Origin: Warburgia ugandensis
Taxonomy: Eukaryota; Streptophyta; Magnoliopsida; Canellales; Canellaceae
NCBI GenBank assembly: GCA_035236585.1
Contig: CP141132.1
Coordinates: forward strand, 39,497,880 to 39,561,879
Reading direction: 5' to 3'
Length of the DNA stretch: 64,000 nt
Positions 24,720 to 52,870 of this stretch are shown in pieces (positions within the stretch are counted from its first letter, which is position 1; each line of letters opens with the position of its first letter). Under the pieces are notes generated by a model, which saw only the letters and a list, made by a program, of their open reading frames with translations, had not been told where the DNA came from and did not search any database. Both the position numbers and the translations under genes were made by a program.

Positions 24720-24730
24720 GCTCGATACCA
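24720..24730 (-). other. Primer-binding site (inverted), one base deleted
   Basis: GCTCGATACCA, the reverse complement of the PBS lacking one base, two bases from the inverted LTR end at 24733. Confidence 0.85.
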
Positions 24731-24732
24731 AC

Positions 24733-28610: not shown

Positions 28611-28648
28611 AGATAATTCAAAATTTATTAACTTAATCAAAAATATAT
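28611..28648. other. Junction filler between inverted LTR and internal fragment
   Basis: About 38 bases matching neither side over their length. The first 17 (AGATAATTCAAAATTT...) match the sense internal region near 4974-4990 and the rest is unassigned AT-rich sequence. This is typical of end joining or template-switch filler. Confidence 0.6.
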
Positions 28649-29743: not shown

Positions 29744-29797
29744 TGTAATGACCCTGAATTTTTGTAACTTATTAAGGCAAATTAATAAGGTGTGAAT
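29744..29797 (+). mobile_element. LTR stub, first ~45-54 bases only
   Basis: TGTAATGACCCTGAATTTTT... matches the non-autonomous LTR start to about 29788, then about 9 ambiguous bases lead into an inverted internal fragment. Confidence 0.82.
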
Positions 29798-30462
29798 AAT
29801 TTCTTTTCAAATTCTATCATTGAAGAGTGGTAACCTTGTGAAGATTCTTTTCTCATTCTCATCACATCCAATGTTTTTGTAACACTCTTTGAGTGTCATT
29901 TTACTCTGCATATACATTCCTGATCCTCTTTTGTTATCCCTTTCTCATATTCAGAACAATATTCTGAACATTCTTACTATCTATGATAATATTTATCTCT
30001 TTTCCTTTCACATATCTATTTATATGTCATGGGCTTCCAAAATTTCTAGATTATACATTTTCTCATACTTCTTTCAAGCATATATCATAACCTTTATCAT
30101 ATCATACTAACTCTTTATTTGCAATATTCTTGATAATTCTAATTAAAAGAGTTCTTATTGATTTTGAATTCATCCCTTCTCAAGTCTTTACAAACTCCAT
30201 AATTTATCATTAACTCATTTAAGATTTACGTAATCTTAAGATTGCACTAAATGTCCTTATGTTATAAAATCAGTAAGAGATATATTTCTCTATTTGTCAT
30301 TGCCATTTCATATATTGATCTTACATTCTCCCTTTGTTGGGGTTAATTTCCATGCTATCCTTAAAATTTATATAACCCTAAACTTTTCTTTCTTCAATCA
30401 ACATGTAACAAGATGATTGACAAGTTTTGTAAGCATCTAACATATATCCCATGAATGCTCTT
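29798..30462 (-). mobile_element. Internal-region fragment, inverted
   Basis: Matches 21776-22440 without a visible difference over long stretches, and is the inverted counterpart of 28649-29150. It stops at ...ATGAATGCTCTT, where LTR D begins after a short AT-rich joint. Confidence 0.85.
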
Positions 30463-31030
30463 AGTAAATTTTTTAAATTATTAAGGAAAATTAATAAAGT
30501 TTGAATTTTTAGAAATTCTGGGCTGGAATATTAGGTTATTGGTTATTGAAAATTCTCTTTTTATAGAGATTATATTAGAAATTAAAAAATAGAAATTATG
30601 GATGTACTTGGAAAACTGATCGTAACAACATTAAGTACGTTCAATTCTGAGTTAAAATAAAAATTCCTTAGTTTTTCCATTTGGGGGTAAAATGGTAATT
30701 TTACCCATATCCCATATCCAAGAAATAAGACCTCAATATTCATGAAGTACTTAGAAATACGATTCCAACGCCACTAAGTACGCTCGATTCTGAGTTCGGA
30801 CAAATATTGCCTATTATTCTCCAATTTTAGAGTTAAAAAGGGCAAAAAGGTCTTTTCACATAAAAGTGGGGCCCACAAAGTGGGCCAAGGTTCTAGAAGC
30901 ACCAATAATTGCTCAATGCATTATTGCTGGTAGTGGAGATTGTAGTGGGAGTGGAGAATGCATTAGTAATTAAAAATTCTAAAGTAATAAAATATCTTAT
31001 CAAAAGAAATGATAAAAAATTCAAATTTGG

Positions 31031-31040
31031 CTATAAATAT
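31031..31040 (+). promoter_or_regulatory. Upstream TATA box of LTR D
   Basis: CTATAAATAT, preceded at 30930-30960 by the two-unit variant of the TAGTGGAGA repeat. Confidence 0.42.
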
Positions 31041-34000
31041 GTCCCAAAAATTTCCAAAAATTTTCACAACCTTAACCACGAAATTTCCAAACCTTCCCTG
31101 GAATTTCCACCCCAAATTTCCCCCCCATCCCTCCCCAAACTCTCTTTTCCTTATTTCTCTCTCCTCTTTCTAATTGGAACAAGAGACCTAAATTCAATTA
31201 GGCACTCCGTTCCAGGAAGAATCTCATCAATTCCACCGTCCATAACATCCTATACTACAGTATATACAAAATCCCCAAATCAATTTCAAGATCCAACGGT
31301 TCCAACAACAGAAAATCACAAAAAGGTGGATAATCAGGCTATATTATCATCAACCGGTAATTCTCTCAAATTGGGCAGCAATTATATTGTTTTTCTCCAA
31401 TCAGGTAGGTGGAATTACTTCCCATTCATATTTATTATGTTTTAGTATAATTTTTATTTTTCTGTAATTTAATTTGAATGAAAAATGGTAAAAATAAAGT
31501 AAATACCAGCCCCTTCAAATTATGGTGATAGAGAGCTCAGATTGAAATTCTGAGCTTTCCAATCAATCCAGGAGGGTCAAAAGCCCCTAGGATACAATTT
31601 TCAAGAAAATCTAACAAGGTTTGGACCCTCAATTGAGAGAGATTAATTCTGGTGGGCCCAGATCAAATCTAGACCCTAGGAATGGCTGAAAACTTCAATT
31701 TAAGATTGTGGAGTCATATGAACTCCAAATTGAGATCAGAAAGAAGCTATGGAAATATTGTAATGTCTAGTTTCTAATGAAGTCATAATATTTCTAAAAT
31801 TTATTTCTGTATTTTTCTGTATTTTTCTATATTTTGGAAATAAGTGTCCAATTTCTAAGATCTTCAAGATCTGAGGTGATCAGATCTTGGAAATTTATTT
31901 TAGTGATGATATAATAATATAATAAAGTAATATCTATGGTTAATTTGGACAGATCTTGGATAAAATAAGGGATCTACCCTTTATGGTAGAAAAACCTTAA
32001 AATAAAAATAAATATATACAAAGGGACCCACTTGATCAATGAGATCAAGTATGATCAGGTCCTTGAGATGGATTAAAGGGATGATATTATGATGGAATCC
32101 AGTTAGATCATGGATGAAATGTGACAAAATCAAGTGAATATGATTTTTGGATCTTAATGGATTAAAAGCCCTAAAGTTAATTAAAACCCTTAATCTAAAG
32201 GAAAACACCTAAGATCTAATGGTTGGATCATATTTAAAGGTTTATAATAATCTTAATAAAATTAGTTTAATTGTCTTTTATTGGATATAGAAGTGTAAAT
32301 GTGATTTATGTTCTAAGTTAGAAAGCATGATAGTGTAATCTTTAAATTTTAGTATGATATGCCCTAAATGAGTAATTTGTTAGTAGATTTGATTATCTTA
32401 GGATCATGTTAGTGTAAATTAGGATTTAAACATGATTTCATTATGATAGAAGATGTGTTTCATAACTTAGGATCATGTTAGTTTTATTTCACTAGCTTAA
32501 GTTATATTCATAGGAAGAATGTTAGTATTTGATTTATGCTTTCAAGTTGATGATTTACTTATTGTCATATTTAATTCAATTGTTAAGTAATTGTTAAAAT
32601 ATAAGGAGCATAAATCACCAAAAATGTAAACTAATGAAATATAGAAATTCATGGACAACTAAGATGAATGAATGATTTTGACTTAGTAAGGGCTATAGTT
32701 AGTAGGACAATATAAGGAATGATTTATCATTTCCTTGGCCCAAAATAGGAAAATAATGAACATCCATGGATGACATTGTGCATATCCATGGAAATTAATT
32801 AAAATCAATTAGAAAAGGGACTTAAGGTAAAGAGCTCATAGGAACCTTGTCAAAGGTTGAGCTAGTACCACTCCAGTGGACTCTGAACATTGTGGTTATA
32901 GGGGGTATACAAGAGCCATGTGCTTTTCCCTCACCTCCCATTGACGTAAGAAAGGTCTAAACGCCTCCTTACATGAGGGTTGTATTAACCACTTTTTGAG
33001 CAGACTTTAACTGGTAAGTACTGGTCATCCTGAAATAAGGAGGAGTTGTCTAGTGATAGGAAGAAATAAATTATCTTCAACCAAGTAAGACACTAACTGG
33101 TTGAATAATAATAAGAACATAAAAAGATAGCAAATTATCTAACCCTAATAAAAATAGTAAGTGAGATAAGGATGATCAAACAAGATGAGATCTTGTATGA
33201 TCAAAAACAATAAGGAAAAAGAAACATCTATGTAAATTAGATTGTTATGTATGATATAGATAGTATTTGTATATATGATATTAAACCCATGGATATAGGA
33301 TATTCAAGGAAGAAAGATTCAGATCATCCTACATAAGGATGATCAAAAGACCATGTAGTATGTACCCTTGATTAGAAAATTGACATTATATATATGATTT
33401 GACAGATATATGTTGATCGAGACTATGGCAGATTTCAAGGGGTAAGAATACCTTAGTGAGGTAGGTGGATTATTAAGAATGCCTTTACATGAAGATACAT
33501 GTCTAATACATGATCTTATGTTTTGAAGTATTGACATGTATGATACCAATATATTAAGGTAAATACCTCAAATTAAAATATGATCCAACCAAATGATGAG
33601 GAAAATAAGTATTAAATGGTCAAGTTGAGAATTGAGAACAACCCTAAGTGAATAGGAAAGTAGAAAATATTCCAGTCCTAGATAAACGGACAAATAGTCG
33701 ATATGTATAAGTATTATTTTACATACAAGCTTGGAGGCTTTGGGCTTTGTTTTAAACAGGCATAAGCCTGGGGATGCTATGCTAGGAGAGTTAAGAGGGT
33801 TTGGCCACCCCCTCTCTGAAACTTGATGATATTGAATACCAAGCCTAAGAAAGGCTAAAAGTCGGGTGGGGCAATTATGGGAAGGCTACCACTGTGACAG
33901 CCATGGTCCTCCCATATGGACATGGATATTGTAATTTCCACTGAGAATGGTATAAGTGGATTATTGAACAGTTATCCCAAGGCGCGTACGGATCGGGATC

Positions 34001-34410
34001 GCAAGCATAGTAGTGCTTGATTATTTTGCACTATGATGCATATGAAATTGGCATAGTGAAATGCCGTAAGGGATGGCATGATGAAATGTCGTGTAATTGT
34101 ATATTACCAATATTTTTCCCAAGAAGGAAATTCCTGTATAGTAACTGGCTGAAATAGAAATCTCTTATAATGAAAAGAGTTGATCAGCTTTGTATAGAAA
34201 TGATGCTTGATTATTTTTACATTTTTAATGGATTTGTCCTTATACAATATGTATGTATAAAGGTGAACACAAATGACAAGGAAATGAGATGTCTTTATAA
34301 TTACTAGTTATTAATGAATGTGTTTATGATAGAACGAATTATGGGATACTTGAATATTGAGATTATACTGTCAATAACTTACATTCTTATCCCCTACCAA
34401 GCATAGCTTG

Positions 34411-34450
34411 CTGAGATATTGTAAATGTTCGAATGTTTACAATATCTCAG
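34411..34450 (+). repeat. R-region hairpin, 15-bp perfect stem, in LTR D
   Basis: CTGAGATATTGTAAA and TTTACAATATCTCAG pair perfectly around TGTTCGAATG. The loop differs by one base from the non-autonomous LTRs and surrounding sequence is diverged, yet the stem is unchanged. Confidence 0.8.
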
Positions 34451-34853
34451 ATACAGAGAAGGAGACTTAGGAGCTCAAGACTTGAAGAACAATTGAAGAA
34501 TAAGTAATCAGGGTATATCCCTCGAAACATTGTATTAGAACATGTATTGAATTTTGAACTTTGTAATTTGGATTGTATATTTGGACAAGTATTGTAAGGA
34601 TACAATGGGCTGTGTCCTGTGAACCACCTTGGATGGATCCCGAAGTTTAATAAAAGTATATTCCTTCAATGGAATTTTATCTTATACAAAATTCTACTTA
34701 TGTTATGTATGAAGTGGTGACTTAGGTTTTACAAAACAAATTCGAAAGAAAAGAATTTCCGCTGCTTTGGTTTGCGAAAAATTTTTACTCTAAGGGCCCT
34801 ATCTTTACAAAATGTATTATAAAATGTGTTATAAAAACCTGGGTCGCCACGCT

Positions 34854-34864
34854 TGGTATCGAGC
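34854..34864 (+). other. Primer-binding site of gag-pol element, one base short
   Basis: TGGTATCGAGC, the tRNA-Met PBS missing one base, two bases after LTR D. The leader to the gag start is about 114 bases. Confidence 0.85.
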
Positions 34865-34978
34865 ATTCATCCAACACAAGACAATCCCAATATGTCCAAG
34901 GGAGAATTGACAATCCAAATTTAGATTAAGATAGATATAGTATGAGGAATACTTATAGAAATTTTGGTTTATGAGCAG

Positions 34979-35284
34979 ATGCCGCCCAAGAGAGTTACAA
35001 GGCGTGACTCAAGGTACTTCGAGAAAACAATAGGGAGGAATTATCAATGAGCAATATGGAAGAAATGGTAACAAGAGTATTGAGGAACCTTATTCCTAAT
35101 ATTCAACTGCCCCAAAGTTCATCACCTCCGGTTGAAGTTCCTAGTATACGAGCACAAGCTCACTGAAGTTAGACCTCATACACCAACACCGAGAGATTCC
35201 TACACCAAGACAGTGGCCAATCTTCCCTTGTACCAAGTGAGGAAGTTCGCAATTCTCCATTAGCACCGAGAAAAGATTGACCAA
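34979..35284 (+). pseudogene. gag N-terminus, frameshifted
   Basis: The ATG at 34979 opens MPPKRVTRRDSRYF, a start typical of plant gypsy gag proteins (MPP + basic). This frame stops at 35048 after 23 codons. The continuation (MSNMEEMVTRVLRNLIP...) is in another frame from 35047 to a stop at 35164. No clear frame between 35167 and 35284; the region is Pro/Ser-rich and poorly conserved in the family. Confidence 0.7.
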
Positions 35285-35740
35285 ATGTTGCAAAGATTTC
35301 AGAAGATGGTGGTTGGATATAATGGCAAGGGTGAAGCAGAAAAGACAGAGGAATGGATCTACGAAGTAGAAAGAACATTTGATGCATTACGTACTCCTCC
35401 CGAATTGAAGGTCAAATTTGCTACATACCTATTAAAACAAGATGTTGCTTTACGGTGGAGATCAGCCAACAACACCTTCTTCTCAAATTCTAATGAGACT
35501 ACTTGGGAGGAATTCAAAGAAGTTTTTAATACTAAGTATTTTCCTACCCATGTAAAATCAAGGAAGGAGAAAGAATTCTTAGAACTTAAACAAGGGAACC
35601 TATCAGTGGTGGAGTATGATAATAAGTTCACCCAATTAAAGAGATTTGCTACACATATGTGTGATACCGAAAGGCACACTGTGGATAGATTTATGGAGGG
35701 ACTACAGCCAAGCCTTCAAGGTGAAAGTGATGGGTACTAA
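35285..35740 (+). pseudogene. gag capsid region (retrotransposon gag domain)
   Basis: The 151-codon open stretch matches the plant retrotransposon gag domain: TEEWIYEVERTFDAL near residue 21, then YLLKQDVALRWR, TTWEEFKEVFNTKYFP and EFLELKQGNLSVVEY..., ending DRFMEGLQPSL. This domain forms the virus-like particle shell. The frame is lost after about 35715 by a small indel; the last residues before the stop are out of frame. The ATG at 35285 is internal, not a true start. Confidence 0.88.
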
Positions 35741-36236
35741 ACCCACCACCATTGCCGATTGTGTAGAAATGGCTTCCAGGTTTGAAGATGAATTCAAGAA
35801 GACTCAAACCATTAAGTTTGGAGGAGGAAACTACAACCAAAGGCCTTTTCAGAAGGGCAAGAGACCTTTCAACAATTTCAAAACCCCCAGAAATCAAGGG
35901 AATCACATAAAAAGAAGGCCTTGTCCGAAATGTAGACGATTCCATCCTGGAAATATGTGTCCCACTCCGATACAACAACGACCTCCGATCAGATGTTTTA
36001 ATTGTGGAGAATTCGGGCATATCTCTGCAAACTGCAACAAACCATTAGCTATTAAGGAGGCGAAACCAGACAATATTCCTCGTCATCAAGGAAGGATATT
36101 CGCTATCACTGATGGCCAGGCTGGACCGTCTAATGCGGTAATTGAAGGTACATTACTTGTATCTGACAACCATGCCAAAGTATTGTTTGATTCTCGGATC
36201 TACGCATTCCTTTATATCTTGCTTATTTGCATCTAG
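35700..36236 (+). pseudogene. gag C-terminus with zinc knuckle, and start of protease
   Basis: Continues gag in the next frame (KVKVMGTKPTTIADCVEMASRFEDEF), then a basic linker. A cysteine-rich CPKCRRFHPGNMC comes before the CCHC zinc knuckle CFNCGEFGHISANC (35994-36035), which binds RNA for packaging. Then the protease begins (GTLLVSDNHAKVLFDS). One inserted base at about 36194, directly after the Asp-Ser of the catalytic DSG-type triad, throws the rest out of frame. Confidence 0.87.
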
Positions 36237-36765
36237 TATACAATTGCCAAGTGAAAAACTTGGGATTCAATCTAGATGTAACAACTCCGATGGGTAAAAC
36301 AGTTAAATTACAAGAATACCTTCATAATGTACCAATAGAAGTCTTGGGAAAAAGAAGAGATGTAGACCTCATTTCTACCGAACATGGTGGACTTTGATAT
36401 CATACTTGGGTATGGACTGGTTAGCAAAATACTTGGGTAGTTATGGATTGTCACAAAAAGAAAATCACATTTAGCATACCTGGTGAGGAAGTAGCGATTA
36501 CTATATGGGAAACAACATGACTTAGACAAATCCATTATTTCAGCTATGAAGACCTGTCAAACACATGTCCAAAGGGTGTCGGGCATTTTTAGCAACAGCT
36601 TGTTGCTTTGGATGTGAAACAGCCCAAGATAATGTAAATTGACATAGTCGAGAGAATTCCCAGACGTCTTTCCGGAAGAACTTCCGAGTACCCCCACGTA
36701 GAGAAATTGAGTTTACCATTGAAGTAATTCCTGGTACAACTCCAATTTCTAAAGCACCTTATAGG
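36237..36765 (+). pseudogene. Protease C-terminus and RT N-terminal linker, multiply frameshifted
   Basis: No single frame is open, but family-typical fragments are legible in alternating frames, including [11 protein letters not shown] near 36655-36690 and [18 protein letters not shown] running into the RT. The spacing is about right for a protease-RT linker, so small indels rather than a large deletion explain it. Confidence 0.72.
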
Positions 36766-37647
36766 ATGGCCCCAGCAGAATTGAAAGAATTGAAGGGTCA
36801 GCTACAAGAATTGTTAGACAAAGGGTTTGTTAGACCAAGAAGTTCACCATGGGGAGCACCAGTAATATTTGTGAAGAAGAAGGATGGATCTATGAGATTG
36901 TGCATGGACTATAGAATGTTGAACAATGTCACCGTGAAAAATAAGTATCCCTTACCTCGCATTGATGATCTCTTTGATCAACTCCAATCTGCTAAGGTCT
37001 TTTCAAAAATCGACCTTAGATCAGGATATCATCAATTGCGTAATAAGGATGAAGATATACCCAAGTCAGCATTCAGAACTCGGTATGGACATTACGAGTT
37101 TCTAGTCATGTCTTTTGGGCTGACCAATGCACCTGCAGTGTTTATGGATCTCATGAACAGAATTTTTAAGGAATTCTTAGACAAATTCGTAATTGTATTT
37201 ATTGATGATATATTGATTTACTCTACCAGTATGGAAGAACATCAAGAACACTTACAAATTGTACTAAATACCCTCAGACTTCATAAACTGTTTGGTAAAT
37301 TTAGTAAGTGTGAATTCTGGTTAGAGAAGGTCAATTTCTTGGGTCATGTAATTTCCAAGAATGGAGTAGAAGTGGGCCCCGCCAAGGTTGAAGCAAGAAT
37401 GAATTGGGAAAAACCTAAGACCGTAATGTACATACGTAGTTTTCTCGGGTTTGGCAGATATTACCGTAGATTTATTCAAGGATTTTCTCGTATAGCCCTT
37501 CCTTTGACTTCATTAACTAGAAAAGGGGTACGATTCACTTGGACAGATGAATGTGAGAATAGTTTCCAAGAGCTAAAAAAGAGGTTAACTACAAAGACCG
37601 GTATTGACATTGCCATCAGGATGTGGGGGATACGAAATATATTGTGA
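36766..37647 (+). pseudogene. Reverse transcriptase domain
   Basis: The 293-codon open stretch holds nearly the whole [28 protein letters not shown] lies at residues 28-53, [11 protein letters not shown] at 81-91 (catalytic Asp 83), [12 protein letters not shown] at 115-126 and FIDDILIYS at 145-153 (catalytic Asp 147-148), then the connection NFLGHVIS and [11 protein letters not shown]. All three catalytic aspartates are present. The frame is lost at about 37600, so the last 15 or so residues are not real. The ATG is internal. Confidence 0.92.
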
Positions 37648-38455
37648 TGCTTCAGGCAAGGGGTTAGGGAGTGTATTGATGCAAAATGGGAAGGTCATTG
37701 CATATGCATCTAGACAATTGAAGAAACATGAAATAAATTATCCAGTACATGACCTGGAATTAGCAGCTGTAGTGTTTGCATTAAAAATTTGGAGACACTA
37801 TTTGTATGGAGAAAAATTCAATGTATTCACAGATCATAAAAGTCTCAAATATATCTTCACTCAAGCTGATTTGAATATGAGACAAAGGAGATGGATGGAA
37901 TACATCAAAGACTATGATTTTGCCATCCATTACCATCCTGGAAAAGCAAACATAGTCGCTGACGCATTAAGTAGACAAACAAGAGCTGTACTTACAAACA
38001 TCGCCATTAAATCAGATTTTGTAGAAAGAGTCCTCAAGGCCCAAGAAGGGGATACAGTAACTCAGGAATTGTGTACAAAGACAGGGTTTTGTAAGGGTAC
38101 AGATGGGGGTATACGTTTTCAGGAGAGATTAGTGGTTCCTACAAATACAGACTTGAGAAAAGAACTATTACAAGAAGCCCATCAATCTAAATTGTCTATA
38201 CACCCTGGAGGTACAAAGATGTATCAGGATTTGAAAAGAAACTTTTGGTGGGAAGGCATGAAAAGAAACATAGGAGAGTTTGTAGCTAAGTGTCTGAATT
38301 GTCAACAAGTAAAAGCTGAACATCAAAGACCACCTGGAATGTTACAAACCTTAGAACTTCCAGAATGGAAATGGGACAATATCACCATGGATTTTGTGGT
38401 GGGATTGCCAAAAACAAGGGAAGGTCATGATATGATTTGGGTGATTGTGGACTGA
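37604..38455 (+). pseudogene. RNase H and integrase N-terminal part
   Basis: The 283-codon stretch in a new frame. RNase [14 protein letters not shown] (Asp 15), [12 protein letters not shown] (Glu 52), [10 protein letters not shown] (Asp 77) and NIVADALSR (Asp 120), so all four catalytic acids are kept. The integrase zinc-binding HHCC motif uses His 193, His 200, Cys 230 and Cys 233. The catalytic core begins [13 protein letters not shown] with the first Asp at 263. The stretch ends at a TGA (38453) just after VIVD. Confidence 0.92.
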
Positions 38456-39432
38456 TTAACAAAGTCGCACATTTTCTTCCAATTAAACAAAACCAGTCAG
38501 TTGACAATCTAGCTAAGTTGTACATAAAAGAAATAGTAAGTCTTCATGGGATTCCTTTATCCATCATCTCTGATAGAGATGGGAGATTTACTTCAAGATG
38601 TTGGAAGAGCGTACAACAAGCATTGGGAACTTCACTTAGATTCGGTCTGACATTTCATCCCCAAACGGATGGTCAATCGAAAGAACTATTCGGACACTTG
38701 GAAGATATGTTAAGGGCATGTGCATTAGATTGGAAGGGAAATTGGGATGAACATCTTCCATTAGTGGAATTTTCTTATAACAACAGTTTTCATGCAAGTA
38801 TTGGTATGGCACCATATGAAGCATTGTATGGGCGACCATGCCGATCACCAACTTGTTGGAGTGAAGTTGGAGAAAGGAAACTAATGAAGTCAGAACTAGT
38901 GGAACGAGTAATACGAGACAAGGTTAAAATGATAAAGCAAAGGTTGTTAACAAAGACACACAGTCGTCAGAAGAGTTACGCGGACAAAAGACGTAGAAAT
39001 CTGGAATTCGATGTGGGAGAGCATGTGTTTCTAAAAATATCACCAATTAAAGGGGTTATGAGATTTGGAACCAAAGGCAAACTCAGTCCTAGGTTCATTG
39101 GTCCATTTGAAATATTAGAAAGGATTGGTCTAGTGGCTTATAGATTAGCCTTACCACCACAACTCTCTGAAGTACACAATGTATTTCATGTATCCCTGTT
39201 ACGAAAATATCTACAAGATGATACTCACATACTTCAAATAATACCAGAGGAACTGAAGCCAGATCTAACCTTTGAAGAAAAAGCGATACGGATCTTGGAC
39301 CATAAGGAACAGAAATTAAGGACCAAAACAATTCCTTTAGTCAAAGTCCTATGGCAACATCACTCTGTCGAAGAAGCTACATGGGAAACAGAGGTAGAAA
39401 TGAGGAAGACACATCCGAGTTTATTTGATTAA
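38437..39432 (+). pseudogene. Integrase core, GPF module and chromodomain
   Basis: Continues the integrase in another frame. The second catalytic Asp is at residue 46 (ISDRDGRF). The glutamate of the DD35E triad should sit 35 residues on, but residue 82 is Lys and a stretch of about seven residues (38677-38701) looks locally frameshifted. The C-terminal part has NNSFHASIGMAPYEALYGR, the GPF-type SPRFIGPFEILERIG, HNVFHVSLLRKY and finally a chromodomain-like segment (RILDHKEQKLRTKTIPLVKV... EEATWE) to the TAA at 39430. Chromodomains direct integration to marked heterochromatin. Confidence 0.9.
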
Positions 39433-39469
39433 GTTATAGTATTACAAATTTCGAGGACGAAATTATTGT

Positions 39470-39482
39470 AAGGGGGGAAGAT
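39470..39482 (+). other. Polypurine tract of gag-pol element
   Basis: AAGGGGGGAAGAT right before TGTAATGACC. It is identical to the non-autonomous elements' PPT, as is the preceding TTTCGAGGACGAAATTATTG block. Confidence 0.93.
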
Positions 39483-40072
39483 TGTAATGACCCCGAAATT
39501 TTGTAAATTATTAAGGAAAATTAATAAAGTTTGAATTTTTAGAAATTAGAATTTGGAATATTGGGTTATTGGTTATTGAAAATTCTCTTTTTATAGAGAT
39601 TATATTAGAAATTAAAAAATAGAAATTATGGATGTACTTGGAAAACTGATCGTAACAACATTAAGTACGTTCAATTCTGAGTTAAAATAAAAATTCCTTA
39701 ATTTTTCCATTTGGGGGTAAAATGGTAATTTTACCCATATCCCATATCCAAGAAATAAGACCTCAATATTCATGAAGTACTTAGAAATACGATTCCAACG
39801 CCACTAAGTACGCTCGATTCTGAGTTCGGACAAATATTGCCTATTATTCTCCAATTTTAGAGTTAAAAAGGGCAAAAAGGTCTTTTCACATAAAAGTGGG
39901 GCCCACAAAGTGGGCCAAGGTTCTAGAAGCACCAATAATTGCTCAATGCATTATTGCTGGTAGTGGAGATTGTAGTGGAGATTGTAGTGGGAGTGGAGAA
40001 TGCATTAGTAATTAAAAATTCTAAAGTAATAAAATATCTTATCAAAAGAAATGATAAAAAATTCAAATTTGG

Positions 40073-40082
40073 CTATAAATAT
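40073..40082 (+). promoter_or_regulatory. Upstream TATA box of LTR E
   Basis: CTATAAATAT, preceded at 39959-40003 by three TAGTGGAGA-type units. Confidence 0.42.
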
Positions 40083-42162
40083 GTCCCAAAAATTTCCAAA
40101 AATTTTCACAACCTTAACCACGAAATTTCCAAACCTTCCATGGAATTTCAGCCCCAAATTCCCCTTCATCCCTCCCCAAACTCTCTTTTCCTTATTTCTC
40201 TCTCCTCTTTCTAATTGGAACAAGAGACCTAAATTCAATTAGGCACTCCGTTCCAGGAAGAATCTCATCCATTCCACCGTCCATAACATCCTATACTACA
40301 GTATATACAAAATCCCCAAATCAATTTCAAGATCCAACGGTTCCAACAACAGAAAATCACAAAAAGGTGGATAATCGGGCTATATTATCATCAACCGGTA
40401 ATTCTCTCAAATTGGGCATCAATTATATTTTTTTTCTCCAATCAGGTAGGTGGAATTACTTCCCATTCATATTTATTATGTTTTAGTATAATTTTTATTT
40501 TTCTGTAATTTAATTTGAATGAAAAATGGTAAAAATAAAGTAAATACCAGCCCCTTCAAATTATGGTGATAGAGAGCTCGCATTGAAATGCTGAGCTTTC
40601 CAATCAATCCAGGAGGGTCAAAAGCCCCTAGGATACAATTTTCAAGAAAATCTAACAAGGTTTGGACCCTCAATTGAGAGAGATTAATTCTGGTGGGCCC
40701 AGATCAAATCTAGACCCTAGGAATGGCTGAAAACTTCAATTTAAGATTGTGGAGTCATATGAACTCCAAATTGAGATCAGAAAGAAGCTATGGAAATATT
40801 GTAATGTCTAGTTTCTAATGAAGTCATAATATTTCTAAAATTTATTTCTGTATTTTTCTGTATTTTTCTATATTTTGGAAATAAGTGTCCAATTTCTAAG
40901 ATCTTCAAGATCTGAGGTGATCAGATCTTGGAAATTTATTTTAGTGATGATATAATAATATAATAAAGTAATATCTATGGTTAATTTGGACAGATCTTGG
41001 ATAAAATAAGGGATCTACCCTTTATGGTAGAAAAACCTTAAAATAAAAATAAATATATACAAAGGGACCCACTTGATCAATGAGATCAAGTATGATCAGA
41101 TCCTTGGGATGGATTAAAGGGATAATATTATGATGGAATCCAGTTAGATCATGGATGAAATGTGACAAAATCAAGTGAATATGATTTTTGGATCTTAATG
41201 GATTAAAAGCCCTAAAGTTAATTAAAACCCTTAATCTAAAGGAAAACACCTAAGATCTAATGGTTGGATCATATTTAAAGGTTTATAATAATCTTAATAA
41301 AATTATTTTAATTGTCTTTTATTGGATATAGAAGTGTAAATGTGATTTATGTTCTAAGTTAGAAAGCATGATAGTGTAATCTTTAAATTTTAGTATGATA
41401 TGCCCTAAATGAGTAATTTGTTAGTAGATTTGATTATCTTAGGATCATGTTAGTGTAAATTAGGATTTAAACATGATTTCATTATGATAGAAGATGTGTT
41501 TCATAACTTAGGATCATGTTAGTTTTATTTCACTAGCTTAAGTTATATTCATAGGAAGAATGTTAGTATTTGATTTATGCTTTCAAGTTGATGATTTACT
41601 TATTGTCATATTTAATTCAATTGTTAAGTAATTGTTAAAATATAAGGAGCATAAATCACCAAAAATGTAAACTAATGAAATATAGAAATTCATGGACAAC
41701 TAAGATGAATGAATGATTTTGACTTAGTAAGGGCTATAGTTAGTAGGACAATATAAGGAATGATTTATCATTTCCTTGGCCCAAAATAGGAAAATAATGA
41801 ACATCCATGGATGACATTGTGCATATCCATGGAAATTAATTAAAATCAATTAGAGAAGGGACTTAAGGTAAAGAGCTCATAGGAACCTTGTCAAAGGTTG
41901 AGCTAGTACCACTCAGGTGGACTCGAACATTGTGGTTATAAGGGGTATACAAGAGCCAAGTGCTTTTCCCTCACCTCCCATTGACGTAAGAGAGGTCTAA
42001 ACGCCTCCTTACATGAGGGTTGTATTAACCACTTTTTGAGCAGACTTTAACTGGTAAGTACTGGTCATCCTGAAATAAGGAGGAGTTGTCTAGTGATAGG
42101 AAGAAATAAATTATCTTCAACCAAGTAAGACACTAACTGGTTGAATAATAATAAGAACATAA

Positions 42163-42686
42163 AAACATAGCAAATTATCTAACCCTAATAAAAATAGTAA
42201 GTGAGATAAGGATGATCAAACAAGATGAGATCTTGTATGATCAAAAACAATAAGGAAAAAGAAACATCAATGTAAATTAGATTGTTATGTATGATATAGA
42301 TAGTATTTGTATAGATGATATTAAACCCTTGGATATATGATATTCAAGGAAGAAAGATTCAGATCATCCTACATAAGGATGATCAAAAGACCATGTAGTA
42401 TGCACCCTTGATTAGAAAAATGACATTATACATATGATTTGACAGATATATGTTGATCGAGACTATGGCAGATTTCAAGGAGTAAGAATACCTTATTGAG
42501 GTAGGTGGATTATTAAGAATGCCTTTACATGAAGATACATGTCTAATACATGATCTTATGTTTTGAAGTATTGACATGTATGATACCAATATATTAAGGT
42601 AAATACCTCAAATTGAAATATGATCCAACCAAATGATGAGGAAAATAAGTATTAAATAAGTTGAGAATTGAGAACAACCCTAAGTG
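42163..42686 (+). repeat. LTR segment, first of two 524-base copies in LTR E
   Basis: Corresponds to 43193-43716 at an offset of exactly 1030 bases. The first 180 bases differ at several sites and resemble LTR G (for example CCCTTGGATATATGA), so this is not a simple recent tandem duplication. Confidence 0.85.
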
Positions 42687-43194
42687 GCAAGGCCACATGT
42701 GTAAGGATGCATTGAACATGAAAGAGTTTATTAAGGAATTTTATTACCCTTGTTCTCCATAAGGATGCATTGAACATAAATGATGTTGAGGAAATTAAGT
42801 ATCGGTTTTCTCTATAAGGATGAGCATTTTCAAAATTTATTATTATTATTTGAGAATTGGAAATGCAACATCAAAGTATAGAATCAATACAAAATTTAAG
42901 TTTTATGAGTTGGATAAATGATGTTCATAAAGTTGAGGAGAATGAAATATATTAGATGAAGTAATAATGATATATGGAAATGGATGTAAGGAGACCAAAA
43001 GAATTCATGGAATATATGTGTTGCAAGTGTACATTTTGATTAAAGAAATCAAGTTTTAAGGTTATATAAATTTTAATAGATTTCAAGAAATCAAGAGCAT
43101 TCATGGGATATATGTTAGATGCTTACAAAACTTGTCAATCATCTTGTTACATGTTGATTGAAGAAAGAAAAGTTTAGGGTTATATAAATTTTAA
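42687..43194 (+). mobile_element. Internal-region piece inserted inside LTR E
   Basis: Two parts: a 20-base piece matching the internal region near 7504-7528 (GGCAAGGCCACATGTGTAAGG), then 0.5 kb matching about 5938-6438. The joints share TAAGTG, TGTAAGG and a short A/T run with the neighbouring sequences, as expected for microhomology-mediated template switching. Confidence 0.85.
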
Positions 43195-43716
43195 AGATAG
43201 CAAATTATCTAACCCTAATAAAAATAGTAAGTGAGATAAGGATGATCAAACAAGATGAGATCTTGTATGATCAAAAACATTAAGGAAAAAGAAACATCTA
43301 TGTAAATTAGATTGTTATGTATGATATAGATAGTATTTGTATAGATGATATTAAACCCATGGATATAGGATATTCAAGGAAGAAAGATTCAGATCATCCT
43401 ACATAAGGATGATCAAAAGACCATGTAGTATGCACCCTTGATTAGAAAAATGACATTATACATATGATTTGACAGATATATGTTGATCGAGACTATGGCA
43501 GATTTCAAGGAGTAAGAATACCTTATTGAGGTAGGTGGATTATTAAGAATGCCTTTACATGAAGATACATGTCTAATACATGATCTTATGTTTTGAAGTA
43601 TTGACATGTATGATACCAATATATTAAGGTAAATACCTCAAATTGAAATATGATCCAACCAAATGATGAGGAAAATAAGTATTAAATAAGTTGAGAATTG
43701 AGAACAACCCTAAGTG
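43193..43716 (+). repeat. LTR segment, second 524-base copy in LTR E
   Basis: Resumes the LTR 524 bases upstream of where it was left, then continues normally to the LTR end. Confidence 0.85.
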
Positions 43717-44357
43717 AATAGGAAAGTAGAAAATATTCCAGCCCTAGTTAAACAGACAGATAGTCGATATGTATAAGTATTATTTTACATACAAGCTTGG
43801 AGGCTTGTGGTTTTATTTTAAACGGGCATAAGCACAGGGATGCTATGCTAAGAGAGTTAAGAGGGTTTGGCCACCCACTCTCTCGAAACTTGATGATGTT
43901 GAATACCAAGCCTAAGAAAGGCTAAAAGTCGGGTGGGGCAATTATGGGAAGGCCACCACTTGTGACAGCCATGGTCCTCCCATACGGACATGGATATTGT
44001 AATTTCCACTGAGAATGGTATAAGTGGATTATTGATCAGTTATCCGGGCGCCGTACGGATCGATCGCAAGCATAGTAGTCCTTGATTATTTTGCATTATG
44101 ATGCATATGAAATTGGCATAGTGAAATGCCTTAAAGGATGGCATGATGAAATTCAGGTAATTGTATATTACCAATATTTTTCCCAGAAGGGAAAATCCCA
44201 AGATAGTAATGCTTGGCTGAAATACAAATCTCCTATAATGAAAGGAGTTGATCAGTTTTGTATGGAAATGATTATTATTTTTACAATTTTAACAGATTTG
44301 TTCTTATATACTATGTATGTATAAAGGTGAACACAAATGATAAGGAAATGAGATGTT

Positions 44358-44852
44358 TATATAAATAATAGTGGTCTGTGAATGTGTTTATGATAGAATG
44401 AATTATGGGATAGTTGAATATTGAGATTTTACTGTCAATAACTTACATTCTTATCCCCTACCAAGCATAGCTTGCTGAGATATTGTAAATGTTCAAATGT
44501 TTACAATATCTCAGATATCTGAAGAAGGAGACTTAGGAGCTCAAGACTTGAAGAACTAGTGAAGAATAAGTAAAAAGGGTATATTCCTTGAAACATTGTA
44601 TAGAGAGCATGTATTGTATTTAGAACTTTGTAATTTGACATGTGTATTTGGACAAGTATTGTAAGGATACAATGGGTTGTGTACTGTGAACCACTGGATG
44701 GATCCTGGAAGTTTAATAAAATCATATTCCTTCAACGGAATTTTATTTTGTACACAAATTGTACTTATGTTATGTATGAAGTGGTGACTTGGGTTTTCAA
44801 AACAAGTTTTAAAATAAAAGAATTTTCGTTGCTTTGTTTTGCAAAAAAAAAA
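44358..44852 (+). promoter_or_regulatory. Core promoter, R hairpin and A-tract of LTR E
   Basis: TATATAAATA at 44358-44367, a 15-bp perfect hairpin at 44475-44514 and A10 at 44843-44852. As 5' LTR of the next unit it would drive the non-autonomous internal region. Confidence 0.48.
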
Positions 44853-44927
44853 TTTACTAAGGGGACGCCCTTGTCTTTGAAAAAATATATTATAAAATGT
44901 GTTTAAAAAAAACCGGGTCGTCACAGT

Positions 44928-44939
44928 TGGTATCAGAGC
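44928..44939 (+). other. Primer-binding site (initiator tRNA-Met)
   Basis: TGGTATCAGAGC, exact, two bases after LTR E. Confidence 0.92.
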
Positions 44940-47900
44940 TATTCATCCAAATCCAAGATGCAGTACCATCATGTCCAATATGAAGATGAATATCCAATTA
45001 AAGGATGAGGATTAGTGAATGAATAAGAGATAAGTTATTAGTTGATGAGAAGGAGTTATATGAATAAGACATAAGTTATTAGTTGATGAGAAGGAGTTAT
45101 GTGATAAACTCATTAGGTAAGAGATAAGTATAGAAGGAGTTGACTCATTAGTGAGGGATAAGTCTTGAAAGAGTAGCCTCAATTGTTGAAGAATATGCAA
45201 AGAGTTGACTCATTAGTGAGGAAAGAGTTAAACTCATTAGTTGAGAAATATGGAAAGAGTTGACTCATTAGTAAAAGATGAGAATAAAAGAGTTAAACTC
45301 ATTAGTTAAGAATGAGTATAAAAAGAGTTATTATGAAGGAATAGTATAGTACAAGTAGATATTATTGGATGAAAGGACTAGAAATATTATTCAGCAAGTA
45401 AGAATTCCAATATAGGGAATAGTAAGATATAAAAATCAATGAGGAAAACATTACAATGGATGTAAGGTATAATGTTCAGGTCTAACCTAAAGTCTGAGTA
45501 AACATACATATGTATGAACAAAGTACACCAATACTAGTATGTATATGACCATTACTAAGTGAAGGAATGGAGATAAAGAGAAAGAAGTGATAAATTGGAA
45601 AATGTGATGGAAAAACTCCAACCTTATGGAATAGGTGAAATGGAGATTTATGATAAATAAAAGCTAAAGAGGAAACTTCAAAATTATTATAAAAATAAAA
45701 ATTTATAATAAATATATGAATAAATATAAGTGTAAGAGTTATAATTGCTACATATATGGTATTATGATAATTAGTTAAATGAAATTAATCATCAAAATAG
45801 AGATGATATTACTTGAAAGGAAATTGAAGAGATAAGTGAGATAATTCAAAATTTTGTAAATGAGGATAGTTTTAAGTAAAGATGAATAAGGAGATAAGTA
45901 AGTAATTTCTCTCCAAACTTAGTAAAGGCAAAGGATTTAATAAAGAGATGATAAAATTTTAGAGCATAAAGAGATGGTCTTTGAAATTTGAATAAAATGA
46001 AATGGGAGAAGAGAGTTTGATATGTTAAAAGGGACAAAAATATGATCCCAAACTTATTAAGAAAGACAATTAAACCATTAGGATGTATGGTTAACAAAGA
46101 AATTATAACAAAAACGAAATTCCTAAGATAGAAATGAAATTGGTATGATAAATTAATTGTGGAAATTAGCATAAAAGGATTTTCAAGGATTAAAGAAATA
46201 TTGATATGATAACTTTGGGATATTGAAAATAATTTTTGGACTATAGTAAAGAGAATTACAATTGATGGTGAAACAACTCTGGAAAATAAGTGAGAAATAT
46301 TGATATGATGAATTGGGAAAATATAGTTATGGATTATCATGAAGAGGAGTATATTTATTGATCAAGGAAAATGAAGAACTAAATATGAATAGAGATATTA
46401 ATTCCACTTACGTGATAGAGTGGTGATATTGAAAGATTTAAGAAATATAGTGAGGAAAATATATTTTTGGAGGAAGGTTGAGAGAAAACATGAGAAATGA
46501 ATACCTATAAACAAATAGTAATATCTAAACTTAAGTGTAGAGTTTGGAAAAATAAGATGATTATGAATAAGTCATAAATCCAAATTTTTGGAGAAAGAAG
46601 TGGTTAGAACTTTAAGATATTTTGAGATTTTCAATCTTACATGAGATTGAATGAGAAAATATCTATAATAGTTGAGGAAAAGAACATCAAATTATTTGAA
46701 TGAGCTGAAAGAACAAATGTTAAGGATTAAGGAGTGATTATAGAAATTTACAGTATGAAAGTAACGACTTTCTTTAGGAAAAGAAAATGGAAAGATCAAT
46801 GTAAGGATGCATTGAACATGAAAGAGTTTATTAAGGAAATTTATTACCCTTGTTCTCCATAAGGATGCATTGAACATAAATGATGTTGAGGAAATTAAGT
46901 ATCCTTTTTCTCTATAAGGATGAACATTTTCAAAAATTTATTATTATTATTCGAGAATTGGAAATACAACATCAAAGTATAGAATCAAAACAAAATTTAA
47001 GTTCTATGAGTTGGATAAATGATGTTCATAAAGTTGAGGAGAATGAAATATATTAGATGAAGTAATAATGATATATGGAAATGGATGTAAGGAGACCAAA
47101 AGAATTCATGGAATATATGTGTTGCAAGTGTACATTTGGATTAAAGAAATCAAGTTTTAAGGTTATATAAATTTTAATAGATTTCAAGAAATCAAGAGCA
47201 TTCATGGGATATATGTTAGATGCTTACAAAACTTGTCAATCATCTTGTTACATGTTGATTGAAGAAAGAAAAGTTTAGGGTTATATAAATTTTAAGGATA
47301 GCATGGAAATTAACCCCAACAAAGGGAGAATGTGAGATCAATATATGAAATGACAATGACAATTAGAGAAATATATATCTTACTGATTTTATAACGTAAG
47401 GACATTTAGTGCAATCTTGCAATGGATTACATAAATCCTAAATGAGTTAATGATAAATTATGGAGTTTGTAAAGACTTGAGAAGGGATGAATTCAAAATC
47501 AATAAGAACTCTTTTAATTATAATTATCAAGAATATTGCAAATTAAGAGTTAGTATGATATGATAAAGGTTATGAGATATGCTTGAAAGAAGTATGAGAA
47601 AATGTATAATCTAGAAATTTTGGAAGCCCATGACATATAAATAGATATGTAAAAGAAAAAGAGATAAATATTATCATAGATGGTAAGAAGGTTCAGAATA
47701 TTGTTTTGAATACGAGAAAGGGATAACAAAGAGGATCGGGAATGTATGCAGTAGTAAAATGACACTCAAAGAGTGTTACAAAAACAATGGATGTGGTGAG
47801 AATGAGGAAAGAATCATCACAAGGTTACCACTCTTCAATGATAGAATTTGAAAAGAAATTTCTCAATAAAAGGAAATAGTAAAGAAGTATGAATTGTAGG

Positions 47901-48452
47901 ATAGAAATAAAGTAATCACTTCCAAATAATGGAGGAACAAGGAAAGAGATAATTACTTCCAAAAATTGGAAGATTGTTACAAAGAACAATAGTGGAAGTT
48001 ATAGAATCCAATCACTATGTTATTAGTAAGGACTATACATAGTAAGAAAGCTATGTCAAAACTTTATATGTTGAAATAGAATGAGAGTGAGCAATAGAAG
48101 ATAGAATGAAAAATTTTCAAGTACGTAAAGATTGATGAAAGTAAGGAGTAGAAATTTAGCCAAGTAGAAGGTTTGAAACCAAAGGATAACTCAGTTAAGA
48201 GTTATTAATCCTTTTGGGAAAGTCTAGCAAAACTCAGCTCAATTGAATGATGCATAAGTAAGGTTAGACAGTGTGAGCATTTTAATAGCAATCAATCATA
48301 TGATTTATACCTTTGAGAAGAAGGTAGATTGAAAAAGGAATAAAAGGAAAGAGGATTTCCTTAAGTGGCAAAGCCATATGTATAAGGCTATGAAAGAATT
48401 GTGAAAACTCCTAAGTGAGTTGATATGCAAATTTCGAGGACGAAATTATTGT

Positions 48453-48463
48453 AAGGGGAAGAT
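48453..48463 (+). other. Polypurine tract, shortened
   Basis: AAGGGGAAGAT with four central G instead of six, directly before LTR F. Confidence 0.85.
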
Positions 48464-49035
48464 TGTAATGACCACGAATTTTTGTAACTTATTAAGGCAA
48501 ATTAATAAAGTTTGAATTTTTAGAAATTCTGGGCTGGAATATTAGGTTATTGAAAATTTTCTTTTTATGAAAATTATATCATGAATTAAAACATATATAT
48601 TATGGATGTACTTGGAAAACTGATCGAAACAACATTAAGTACGTTCAATTCTGAGTTAAAATGAACATTCCTTAATTTTCTCCATTTAGGGGCAAAATGG
48701 TAATTTTACCAATATTTCATATCTAAGAAATAAGACCTCAATATTCATGAAGTACTTAGAAATACGATTCCAACGCCACTAAGTACGCTCAATTCCGAGT
48801 TCGGACAAATAATGCCTATTTTTCTCCAATTTTAGAGTTATAAGGGCAAAAACGTCTTTTTACATAAAAGTGGGGCCCACAAAGTGGGGCAACGTTCTAG
48901 AAGCAACAATAATTGCTCAGTGCATTATTGCTGGTAGTGGAGAATGTAGTGGAGAATGGAGAATGCACTTGCAATAAAAAATTCTAAAGTAATAAAATAT
49001 CTTATTAAAAGAAATGATAAAAAATTCAAATTTGG

Positions 49036-49045
49036 CTATAAATAT
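49036..49045 (+). promoter_or_regulatory. Upstream TATA box of LTR F
   Basis: CTATAAATAT at the conserved LTR position. Confidence 0.42.
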
Positions 49046-52000
49046 GTCCCAAAAATTTCCAAAAATTTTCACAACCTTAACCACGAAATTTCCAAATCTT
49101 CCTTGGAGTTTCAGCCCCAAATTCTCATTCATCCCTCCCCAATCTCTATTTTTCTTTTTTCTCTCTCCTCTTTCTAAGTGGAACAAGAGACCTAAATTCA
49201 ATTAGGCACTCCGTTCCAGGAAGAATCTGATCAATTCCACCGTCCATAACCTCCTACACTACATTATATACAAAAGCCCCAAATCAATTTCAAGATCCAA
49301 CGGTTCCAACAACAGAAAACTACAAAAGGTAGACAATCGGGCTATATTATCATCAACCGGTAATTCTCTCAAATTGAGCATCAAATATATGTTTTTTCTC
49401 CAATCAAGTAGGTGGAACTACTTCCCATTCATATTTATTATGTTTTAGTGTAATTTTTATTTTTCTGTAATTTAATTTGAATGAAAAATGGTAAAAATAA
49501 AGTAAATACCAGCCCCTTCAATTTATGGTGATAGAGAGCTCAGATGGAAATTCTGAGTTTTCCAATCAATCCAGAAGGGTCAAAAACCCTTAGGATACAA
49601 TTTTCAAGAAAATCTAACAAGGTTTGGACCCTCAATTGAGAGAGATTAATTCTGGTGGGCCCATATCAAATCTGGACCCTAGGAACGGCTGAAAACTTCA
49701 ATTTAAGATTGTGGAGTCATATGAACTCCAAATTGAGATCAGAAAGAAGCTATGGAAATCTTGTAATGTCTAGTTTCTAATGAAGTCATAATATTTCTAA
49801 AAATTATATCTGTATTTTTCTGTATTTTTTTAAATAAGTGTCCAATTTCTAAGATCTTCAAGATCTGAGGTGATCAGATCTTGGAAATTTATTTTAGTGA
49901 TGATATAATAATGTAATAAAGTAATATATATGGTTAATTTGTACAGATCTTGGATAAAATAGGGGATCTACCCTTTATGGTAGAAAAATCGTAAAATATA
50001 AAATAAAAAAATTACAAAGGGACCCACTTGATCAATGAGATCAAGTATGATCAGATCCTTGGGATGGATTAAAGGGATGATATTATGATGGAATCTAGCT
50101 AGATCATGGATGAAATGTGACAAAATCAAGTGGATAAGATTTTTGGATCTTAATGGATTAAAAGCCCTAAAGGTAATTAAAACCCTTAATCTAAAGGAAA
50201 ACACCTAAGATCTAATGGTTGGATCATATTTAAAGGTTTATAATAATCTTAATAAAATTAGTTTAAATTGTCTTTTATTGGATATAGAAGTGTAAATGTG
50301 ATTTATGTTATAAGTTAGAAAGCATGATAGTGTAATCTTTAAATTTTAGTATGATATGCCCTAAATGAGTAATTTGTTAGTAGATTTGATTATCTTAGGA
50401 TCATGTTAGTGTAAATTAGGATTTAAACATGATTTCATTATGATAGAAGATGTGTTTCATAACTTAAGATCATGTTAGTTTTATTTCACTATTTTAAGTT
50501 ACATTCATAGGAAGAATGTTAGTATATAGTTGTTAAACTTATATTTGATTTATGCTTTCAAGTTGATGAATTACTCATTGTCAAAATTTATTCAATTGTT
50601 AAGTAATTGTTAAGATATAAGGAGCATAAATCACCAAAAATGTAAACTAATGAAATATAGAAATTCATGGACAACTAAGATGAATGAATGATTTTGACTT
50701 AGTAAGGGCTATAGTTAGTAGGACAATATAAGGAATGATTTATCATTTCCTTGGCCCAAAATAGGAAAATAATGAACATCCATGGATGACATTGTGCATA
50801 TCCATGGAAATTAATTAAAATCAATTAGAGAAGGGACTTAAGGTAAAGAGCTCATAGGAACCTTGTCAAAGGTTGAGCTAGTACCACTCAAGTGGACTAC
50901 GAACATTGTGGTTATAGGGGGTATACAAGAGCCAAGTGCTTTTCCCTCACCTCCCATTGACGTAAGAGAGGTCTAAACGCCTCCTTACATGAGGGTTGTA
51001 TTAACCACTTTTTGAGCAGACTTTAACCGGTAAGTACTTGGTCATCTGAAATAAGGAGGAGTTGTCTAGTGATAGGAAGAAATAAATTATCTTCAACCAA
51101 GTAAGACACTAACTGGTTGAATAATAATAAGAACATAAAAAGATAGCAAATTATCTAACCCTAATAAAAATAGTAAGTGAGATAAGGATGATCAAACAAG
51201 ATGAGATCTTGTATGATCAAAAACATTAAGGAAAAAGAAACATCTATGTAAATTAGATTGTTATGTATGATATAGATAGTATTTGTATAGATGATATTAA
51301 ACCCATGGATATAGGATATTCAAGGAAGAAAGATTCAGATCATCCTACATAAGGATGATCAAAAGACCATGTAGTATGCACCCTTGATTAGAAAAATGAC
51401 ATTATACATATGATTTGTCAGATATATGTTGATCGAGACTATGGCAGATTTCAAGGAGTAAGAATACCTTATTGAGGTAGGTGGATTATTAAGAATGCCT
51501 TTACATGAAGATACATGTCTAATACATGATCTTATGTTTTGAAGTATTGACATGTATGATACCAATATATTAAGGTAAATACCTCAAATTGAAATATGAT
51601 CCAACCAAATGATGAGGAAAATAAGTATTAAATAAGTTGAGAATTGAGAACAACCCTAAGTGAATAAGAAAGTAGAAAATATTCCAGCCCTAGTTAAACG
51701 CAGAGATAGTCCGATATGTATAAGTATTATTTTACATACAAGCTTGGAGGCTTGTGGTTTTGTTTTAAACAGGCATAAGCCTGGGGATGCTATGCTAAGA
51801 GAGTTAAGAGGGTTTGGCCACCCACTCTCTGAAACTTGATGATGTTGAATACCAAGCCTAAGAAAGGCTAAAAGTCGGGTGGGGCAATTATGGGAAGGCC
51901 ACCATCGTGACAGCCATGGTCCTCCCATAAGGACATGGATATTGTAATTTCCACCGAGAATGGTATAAGTGGATTATTGAACAGGTTATCCCGGCGCGCG

Positions 52001-52308
52001 ACGGATCAGACTGCAAGCATAGTAGTCCTTGATTATTTTGCATTATGATGCATATGAAATTGGCATAGTGAAATGCCTTAAAGGATGGCATGATGAAATG
52101 CCTGGTAATTGTATATTACCAATATTTTTCCCAGGAAGGGAAAAACCCAAGATAGTAATGCGGCTGAAATACAAATCTCCTATAATGAAAGGAGTTGATC
52201 AGTTTTGTATGGAAATGATTATTGATTATTTTTACAATTTTAACGGATTTGTTCTTATATACTATGTATGTATAAAGGTGAACACAAATGATAAGGAAAT
52301 GAGATGTT

Positions 52309-52790: not shown

Positions 52791-52861
52791 TTTACTAAGG
52801 GGATGCCCTTGCCTTTGAAAAATATATTATAAAATGTGTTTCAAAAACCCGGGTCGTCACA

Positions 52862-52870
52862 GTTGTTATC
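52862..52870 (+). other. Primer-binding-site remnant cut by a junction
   Basis: GTTGTTATC: the spacer plus the first bases of the PBS with one mismatch, then an abrupt switch into an inverted LTR at about 52871. No internal region follows LTR F. Confidence 0.7.

What the first reader, a model, noticed from the sequence alone, without database searches (positions are those of the whole stretch)
30463..48463. Autonomous and non-autonomous elements share one chimeric LTR
LTR E closes the gag-pol element and opens a non-coding LARD-like unit. Its 5' part carries the variants of LTR D and its 3' part those of the non-autonomous LTRs, with the switch between about 41.6 and 42.4 kb. PBS, PPT, PPT-proximal block and R hairpin are common to both kinds. 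This places a candidate helper and its dependants in one family and shows they have recombined. The LARD resemblance is to a described class; this particular pairing looks worth describing.
Basis: partly seen in the sequence, partly recalled or inferred. Interest (0 to 1): 0.8.

Follow-up and report, generated by a model that had tools for sequence, protein, structure and literature searches.

The report
Helper and parasite retrotransposons swap LTRs
A plant retrotransposon that carries the copying genes and a gene-less relative that lacks them exchange pieces of their long end repeats, here inside a scrambled 145-kb cluster that looks as if it grew from one insertion; the swapping itself is a known kind of event, the cluster is an unusually tangled example.

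Summary
The core of the finding holds, but E is not an intact LTR. The gag-pol element (A; Ty3/gypsy, probably a chromovirus) and the non-coding units (N; LTR about 4.46 kb, internal 3.5 kb) share PBS/leader, PPT block and an LTR hairpin. Their LTRs differ mainly at the two ends. E is A-type up to window 41614 and N-type from 41992, then breaks at 42686: 13 bp, 493 bp of N internal DNA, and a restart at LTR position 2727. D lacks its first 13 bp.

D and E's 5' part share a private 19-bp gap and 98.8% identity, so they look like the LTR pair of one A insertion. Only E is switched, so the exchange most likely came after insertion, at the DNA level. Unbroken shared mosaic LTRs lie about 56 kb upstream of E (A>N) and at C7:2.39 Mb (N>A). 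One clean A and one clean N insertion with LTR ends of their own type were found.

The window sits inside a 145,336-bp cluster, 99.92% this family, with 14 orientation switches and 28 irregular joins, bounded by LTR termini and a 5-bp duplication. LTR swapping between such partners and TSD-bounded tandem LTR elements are in print; this is a new, unusually scrambled case.

The parts
30467..34850 (+). LTR D, A type, LTR positions 14-4463 (first 13 bp missing)
   Evidence: A-state at all but five scored diagnostic sites
34851..39482 (+). gag-pol internal region (A): PBS, gag, zinc knuckle, protease, RT, RNase H, integrase, sub-threshold chromodomain, PPT; reading frame broken
   Evidence: Chromo 22.8 bits, cut-off 25.1
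39445..39482 (+). PPT-proximal 38-bp block shared with N units
   Evidence: 94.7-100% identical
39483..42686 (+). E, first part: LTR 1-3249; A type to 41614, N type from 41992
42687..42699 (+). 13 bp at the break, outside the BLAST matches
42700..43192 (+). piece of N internal region, positions 1854-2346, inside E
43193..44924 (+). E, second part: LTR 2727-4463, N type; its first 524 bp repeat 42163-42686 (5 differences)
44925..48463 (+). N internal region, non-coding, PBS at 5' end and PPT at 3' end
48464..52860 (+). LTR F, N type at every scored diagnostic site
29798..30462 (-). inverted N internal fragment (2248-2916) abutting D
28649..29797 (+). N internal end (2426-3534), PPT and about the first 54 bp of an LTR, cut off
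19954..28613 (-). inverted N unit with partial LTRs (LTR 582-4463, internal, LTR 1-1205)
1..19956 (+). head-to-tail N array: LTR-internal-LTR-internal-LTR
52869..63944 (-). inverted N unit: LTR 39-4462, internal, LTR 1-3062

Best explanation
A (gag-pol) and N (non-coding, LARD-like) elements are the autonomous-type and dependent members of one Ty3/gypsy family. An A element with A-type LTRs on both sides came to lie next to N units. Its 3' LTR then recombined with an N-type LTR inside the long, nearly identical middle of the LTR, so the shared LTR keeps the A-type U3 edge next to A and the N-type U5 edge next to N. Breaks put a piece of N internal DNA and an LTR duplication into E. All this sits in a 145-kb family-only cluster that began as one N insertion (outer LTR pair with a 5-bp duplication) and grew by exchange, duplication and inversion among family copies. 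Shown: LTR types, mosaics, cluster outline, edge duplication. Inferred: DNA-level exchange after insertion, the order of events, growth from one insertion, dependence of N on A.
For: A- and N-type LTR ends separate at 100/100 in both end trees. E changes type (0 of 2000 permutations). D and E5 are the only 2 of 32 rows spanning the place that lack LTR 2111-2129, and they differ by 25 of 2106 bases over LTR 14-2177, like other LTR pairs (45 of 4444 and 53 of 4373). D is not switched as E is, though both LTRs of a freshly copied element should be alike. Two further A elements have unlike LTRs: L037 and L038 on the two sides of the A at C7:2.397 Mb, and n41900r (N then A) against n36877r (A, 402 bp left). 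A-N net divergence is 3.2-5.5% at LTR 1-900, 0.4-1.9% at 1201-3600 and 6.5-14.1% at 3601-4463, although in one older relative (og1) LTR 2401-3600 (68-75% identical) is about as diverged as LTR 301-900 (65-71%). Cluster edges: LTR termini with TTCAG on both sides; outer LTRs 98.79% identical with the same mosaic pattern. 99.92% of 145,336 bp is this family.
Against: LTR 1501-2400 is well conserved in og1 (82-88%), so part of the similar middle is constraint. A second older relative (og3) is more alike at LTR 2401-3600 (64-76%) than at 1-2100 (45-64%, hardly alignable), which also favours constraint; og2, held only from LTR 2101 on, shows 60-78% at 2401-3600 and 59-73% at 3601-4463. The five middle N-states in E5 are weakly diagnostic: L004 and L008, mostly A-type elsewhere, carry three of the five, L007 one. 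The ten-site run seen in E5 (five A-states, then five N-states) also occurs in three other rows (n26432r, n67374r, L003), so that switch may be older than E. E3 and F are not a close pair (39 of 1704 differences), so the N side was itself reshuffled. An AU test forcing E3 to the A side of the 3' tree was not rejected (p 0.227). Two of four control rows reach few permutations too (4 and 11 of 2000, with lower chi-square). Misassembly of E cannot be excluded. No transcript, particle or mobility data.
Confidence: 0.75

Rival explanations
1. Exchange during reverse transcription: A and N RNAs are copied together and template switching makes mosaic LTRs.
For: Reported for a plant LTR element (Onsen, PMC5668417, passage: most LTR recombinants fit the first template switch in R). 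The founding N insertion carries the same mosaic pattern in both LTRs (n26432r and n67374r), so some mosaics were copied through RNA.
Against: It predicts two like LTRs per element. D is A-type while E is switched; L037 and L038 differ; n41900r and n36877r differ. The switch points differ (541-632, 2158-2983, 3178-3385, 2177-2556).
Confidence: 0.15
2. Assembly artefact: D-E-F is a misjoin of similar copies.
For: E's break was found only at this locus among 40 scored candidates; LTR copies are highly alike, which makes misjoins possible.
Against: Two other shared mosaic LTRs without a break exist. D and E5 share a private gap. The cluster has matching termini and a 5-bp duplication, and the same older element on both sides. 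An inverted junction was also seen elsewhere (L011 on C12). None of this tests E itself.
Confidence: 0.15
3. E was made by end joining alone: an A element cut at LTR 3249 joined to a cut N internal piece and a cut N LTR, with no homologous switch.
For: The break at 42686-43193 is a non-homologous join, two of the 28 irregular joins in the cluster; the middle sites are weakly diagnostic.
Against: Five of five diagnostic sites between 41992 and the break are already N, and mosaics without breaks occur elsewhere.
Confidence: 0.25
4. Nested insertion alone built the array.
For: At three of the 28 irregular joins an LTR start terminus meets an inner LTR position (39434515, 39489286, 39567371) and at one (39463080) an LTR end does.
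Against: By eye these termini do not pair into a complete inserted element in the tile list, and the other irregular joins lie away from such clean termini.
Confidence: 0.08

Closest known systems
Autonomous/non-autonomous LTR swapping in soybean (Du et al. 2010, Plant Cell 22:48-61; title seen in a reference list, content recalled, paper not held)
   Same: Partner elements with and without coding capacity exchange LTRs.
   Different: Here exchange is seen in single shared LTRs inside arrays, with LTR ends still tied to the neighbouring internal region; lineage and host not compared.
Tandem LTR-retrotransposons (Morales-Diaz et al. 2025, PMC11899658; abstract, section 8 and Discussion read)
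   Same: LTR-internal-LTR-internal-LTR with shared inner LTRs inside one target duplication; gypsy elements more prone. The abstract argues for a single insertion, the Discussion leaves recombination open.
   Different: The rice example of section 8 is a tandem of two elements; here gag-pol and non-coding units are mixed over 145 kb with 14 orientation switches.
LARD (Kalendar et al. 2004; described in PMC7215508 passages)
   Same: A large non-coding internal domain between LTRs, no gag-pol, presumed trans-mobilisation.
   Different: A likely partner is identified here by shared LTR, PBS/leader and PPT; structure conservation of the internal RNA was not tested.
Autonomous and non-autonomous CRM in hop centromeres (PMC12371157, passages)
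   Same: Ty3/gypsy pair with shared PBS motifs and inferred dependence.
   Different: Hop non-autonomous CRMs are described as lacking RT, RH and INT; the N internal region here shows no recognisable gag-pol.
Dasheng/RIRE2 in rice (recalled; only a search listing seen)
   Same: Non-autonomous element with a putative autonomous partner.
   Different: I recall no mosaic shared LTR or mixed cluster for it; not checked.

Membership tests
Ty3/gypsy element (A) | gag, protease, RT, RNase H, integrase in that order | tested here: met
   Pfam Retrotrans_gag, zf-CCHC, RVP_2, RVT_1, RT_RNaseH, Integrase_H2C2, SH3_Tf2-1 above cut-off
Chromovirus | C-terminal chromodomain | tested here: inconclusive
   Pfam Chromo 22.8 bits, below its 25.1 cut-off; some listed relatives carry PF00385
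Tekay lineage | RT phylogeny within Tekay | not tested
   Name recalled; no tree made
LARD (N element) | long LTRs and a conserved non-coding internal domain | tested here: met
   LTR 4463, internal 3534; full internals in the cluster about 93-97% like the reference; best tblastn of five A ORFs against three N internals E 0.019
LARD (N element) | conserved internal RNA structure | not tested
   Passage says LARDs and TRIMs specify conserved structures
Non-autonomous partner of A | shared PBS, PPT and LTR signals | tested here: met
Non-autonomous partner of A | mobilised by A proteins | not testable with these tools
   needs expression or mobility data
Tandem LTR-retrotransposon | units sharing one LTR, whole flanked by one TSD | tested here: met
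   TTCAG at both cluster edges; N units head to tail
Tandem LTR-retrotransposon | head-to-tail units of one kind | tested here: not met
   14 orientation switches, A and N mixed

The most novel reading that the evidence does not exclude
One N insertion grew from about 12.5 kb to 145 kb by drawing in only copies of its own family, gag-pol copies included, through exchange in the LTR middle. The LTR middle acts as a common recombination zone that keeps helper and parasite LTRs alike, while the two LTR edges, tied to the PPT/U3 and U5/PBS ends, diverge into helper and parasite types.
Probability: 0.3. Interest if true: 0.6.

Novelty: new variant of a known kind. Interest (0 to 1): 0.45.

Why it matters
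How gene-less retrotransposons stay usable by their helpers is an open question. Here exchange shows in both directions (A>N and N>A) in single LTRs, and its expected footprint, similar middles and diverged ends, can be tested genome-wide. The cluster also suggests how a single insertion may turn into a satellite-like, family-only block that includes gag-pol copies.

Tried and rejected
Rejected: E as a simple chimeric LTR. Rejected: N internal region as a worn gag-pol; tblastn of five A ORFs against three N internals gave nothing better than E 0.019, and blastn only the 38-bp PPT block, a 26-27-bp match at E 0.012-0.041 and matches at E 0.5. Rejected as proof: likeness of the LTR middle alone (og1 and og3 point partly to constraint). 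Not useful: tRNA and Rfam scans of the window, no hits.

An outer-end survey was cut to four elements. Of eight stretches three held an LTR: the 3' end of the A at C4:23.3 Mb (A type) and both ends of the N at C7:48.98 Mb (N type, TSD ATCCC, 3' terminus reads TCATA). Five held none at the expected place: the 5' end of the C4 A, both ends of the A at C3:28.0 Mb, both ends of the N at C13:17.1 Mb. So the clean insertions are one A (C2:33.83 Mb, both LTRs whole) and one N (outer LTR ends only), not a survey.

Limits: diagnostic sites were defined with 11 N rows (one of them, n26432r, a mosaic) and 4 A rows (D, L038, L039, L040), so these are not independent of the sites; E, n76891, L037, n41900r and L003 were in neither set. 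L002-L008 have unknown flanks. A copies come from 40 scored of 5780 candidates, N copies from 40 scored of 1825.

Papers: PMC11899658 abstract, section 8, Discussion; PMC5668417, PMC12371157 and PMC7215508 passages; others only as search listings. I saw no mixed, inverted cluster of this kind in those listings and do not claim it is absent from print.

Full report
The window is C7:39497880-39561879 of an unnamed 1.12-Gb genome in 14 contigs. Among the 120 listed relatives of the integrase end, those with a species name are from flowering plants, so the host is most likely one.

Anatomy. With 7605-12067 as LTR reference (4463 bp) and 12068-15601 as N internal reference (3534 bp), nearly the whole window tiles into LTR, N internal and one gag-pol internal. 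D is 30467-34850 (LTR 14-4463), gag-pol 34851-39482, E 39483-44924, N internal 44925-48463, F 48464-52860. E is LTR 1-3249, 13 bp, N internal 1854-2346, LTR 2727-4463. The gag-pol copy lies in five ORFs in different frames with gag, zinc knuckle, protease, RT, RNase H, integrase and a sub-threshold chromodomain.

Types. In an alignment of 37 LTR rows 149 columns separate N from A rows: 49 at LTR 1-1200, none at 1201-1500, 24 at 1501-3600 and 76 at 3601-4463. E5 is A-type up to 41614, with isolated N-states on the way (40430, and 41174, 41420 and 41551, which D shares at the same LTR positions), and N at 41992, 42420, 42431, 42496 and 42615. The max-chi-square split for E lies at LTR 2177-2478, 0 of 2000 permutations; the other four mosaic rows tested also had 0 of 2000; the four control rows had 701, 11, 72 and 4 of 2000, with chi-square 7-24 against 54-156 for the mosaics. 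For n76891 the best single split (LTR 2080-2090) differs from its plain change of state at 541-632. Trees: E5 with A (LTR 14-1000), E3 inside N (LTR 3600-4460).

D and E as a pair. D and E5 differ by 25 of 2106 bases over LTR 14-2177 and are the only 2 of 32 spanning rows that lack LTR 2111-2129. Other pairs: C2 A element 45 of 4444, founding N 53 of 4373. With 1.3e-8 (recalled) or 6e-9 substitutions per site and year (near the hop value 6.1e-9 in a passage) these give about 0.4-1.0 million years; exchange between copies makes this rough.

Beyond E. C7:39476891-39481388 lies between A internal (3005-4632) and N internal and changes from A to N. L037 lies between N and A and changes from N to A; L038 between two A internals has an N patch at LTR 253-541 (the second A from the RT hit at C7:2406054). 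n41900r, the 5' LTR of the A copy at C7:39437286-39441897, changes from N to A at 3178-3385, while the 402 bp left of its 3' LTR are A. The C2:33.83 Mb A element has A-type LTRs throughout and TSD ACATC. N arrays with about 8-kb spacing show on C1, C2, C10 and C13.

Cluster. C7:39426432-39571762 plus the right-hand duplication (145,336 bp) is 99.92% covered at 85% identity or more by LTR, N internal or A internal references; one stretch of 20 bp or more (35 bp) is unassigned. Its 66 tiles show 14 orientation switches and 28 irregular joins, 10 near-complete N internals, two near-complete A internals and one partial A (counted by eye). The edges are an LTR end and an LTR start in the same (minus) orientation, with TTCAG on both sides. 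The host is an older A-like element (about 74-75% identical) that runs to A position 3262 on the left and resumes at 3385 on the right. The two outer LTRs are 98.79% identical over 4373 bases with the same mosaic pattern at the sites both hold.

Mechanism. The pattern asks for exchange between LTRs of different units after insertion, because LTRs of one element are unlike. Copying through RNA must also have happened, since the founding N pair shares a mosaic pattern. The low A-N difference in the LTR middle is partly conservation and, at LTR 2401-3300, possibly exchange: og1 supports that, og3 speaks against it, og2 is neutral. The E break and the inversions look like break repair that used other family copies; this step is inference.

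Known or new. LTR swapping between partners, TSD-bounded tandems and LARDs are in print. The mixed, inverted, family-only cluster with shared LTRs in both directions is a new variant as far as the listings seen go.

Noticed in passing
12068-15601: N internal region is strongly strand-asymmetric: A 42-46%, C 7-9% in its seven 500-bp bins; reason unknown.
   Followed up: partly
C7:39436877-39445943: An A unit with LTR 411-4463 on its 5' side and LTR 1-402 on its 3' side, like a one-LTR circle opened inside the LTR.
   Followed up: partly
C7:39434515, 39489286, 39567371: LTR start termini joined to inner LTR positions about 4286-4384, three times; may point to one kind of event.
   Followed up: partly
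L037, from 4615: The A element at C7:2.39 Mb carries an N-like PBS/leader (TGGTATCAAAGC) although its U5 end is A type.
   Followed up: no
30909-31445 +, 45846-46340 -, 58080-58574 +: ORFs of 164-178 aa in LTR or N internal sequence with no Pfam match; probably chance.
   Followed up: partly
L011 (C12:39.66 Mb): Another inverted junction, N internal 1009 against LTR 1862, so scrambled joins are not limited to this cluster.
   Followed up: no
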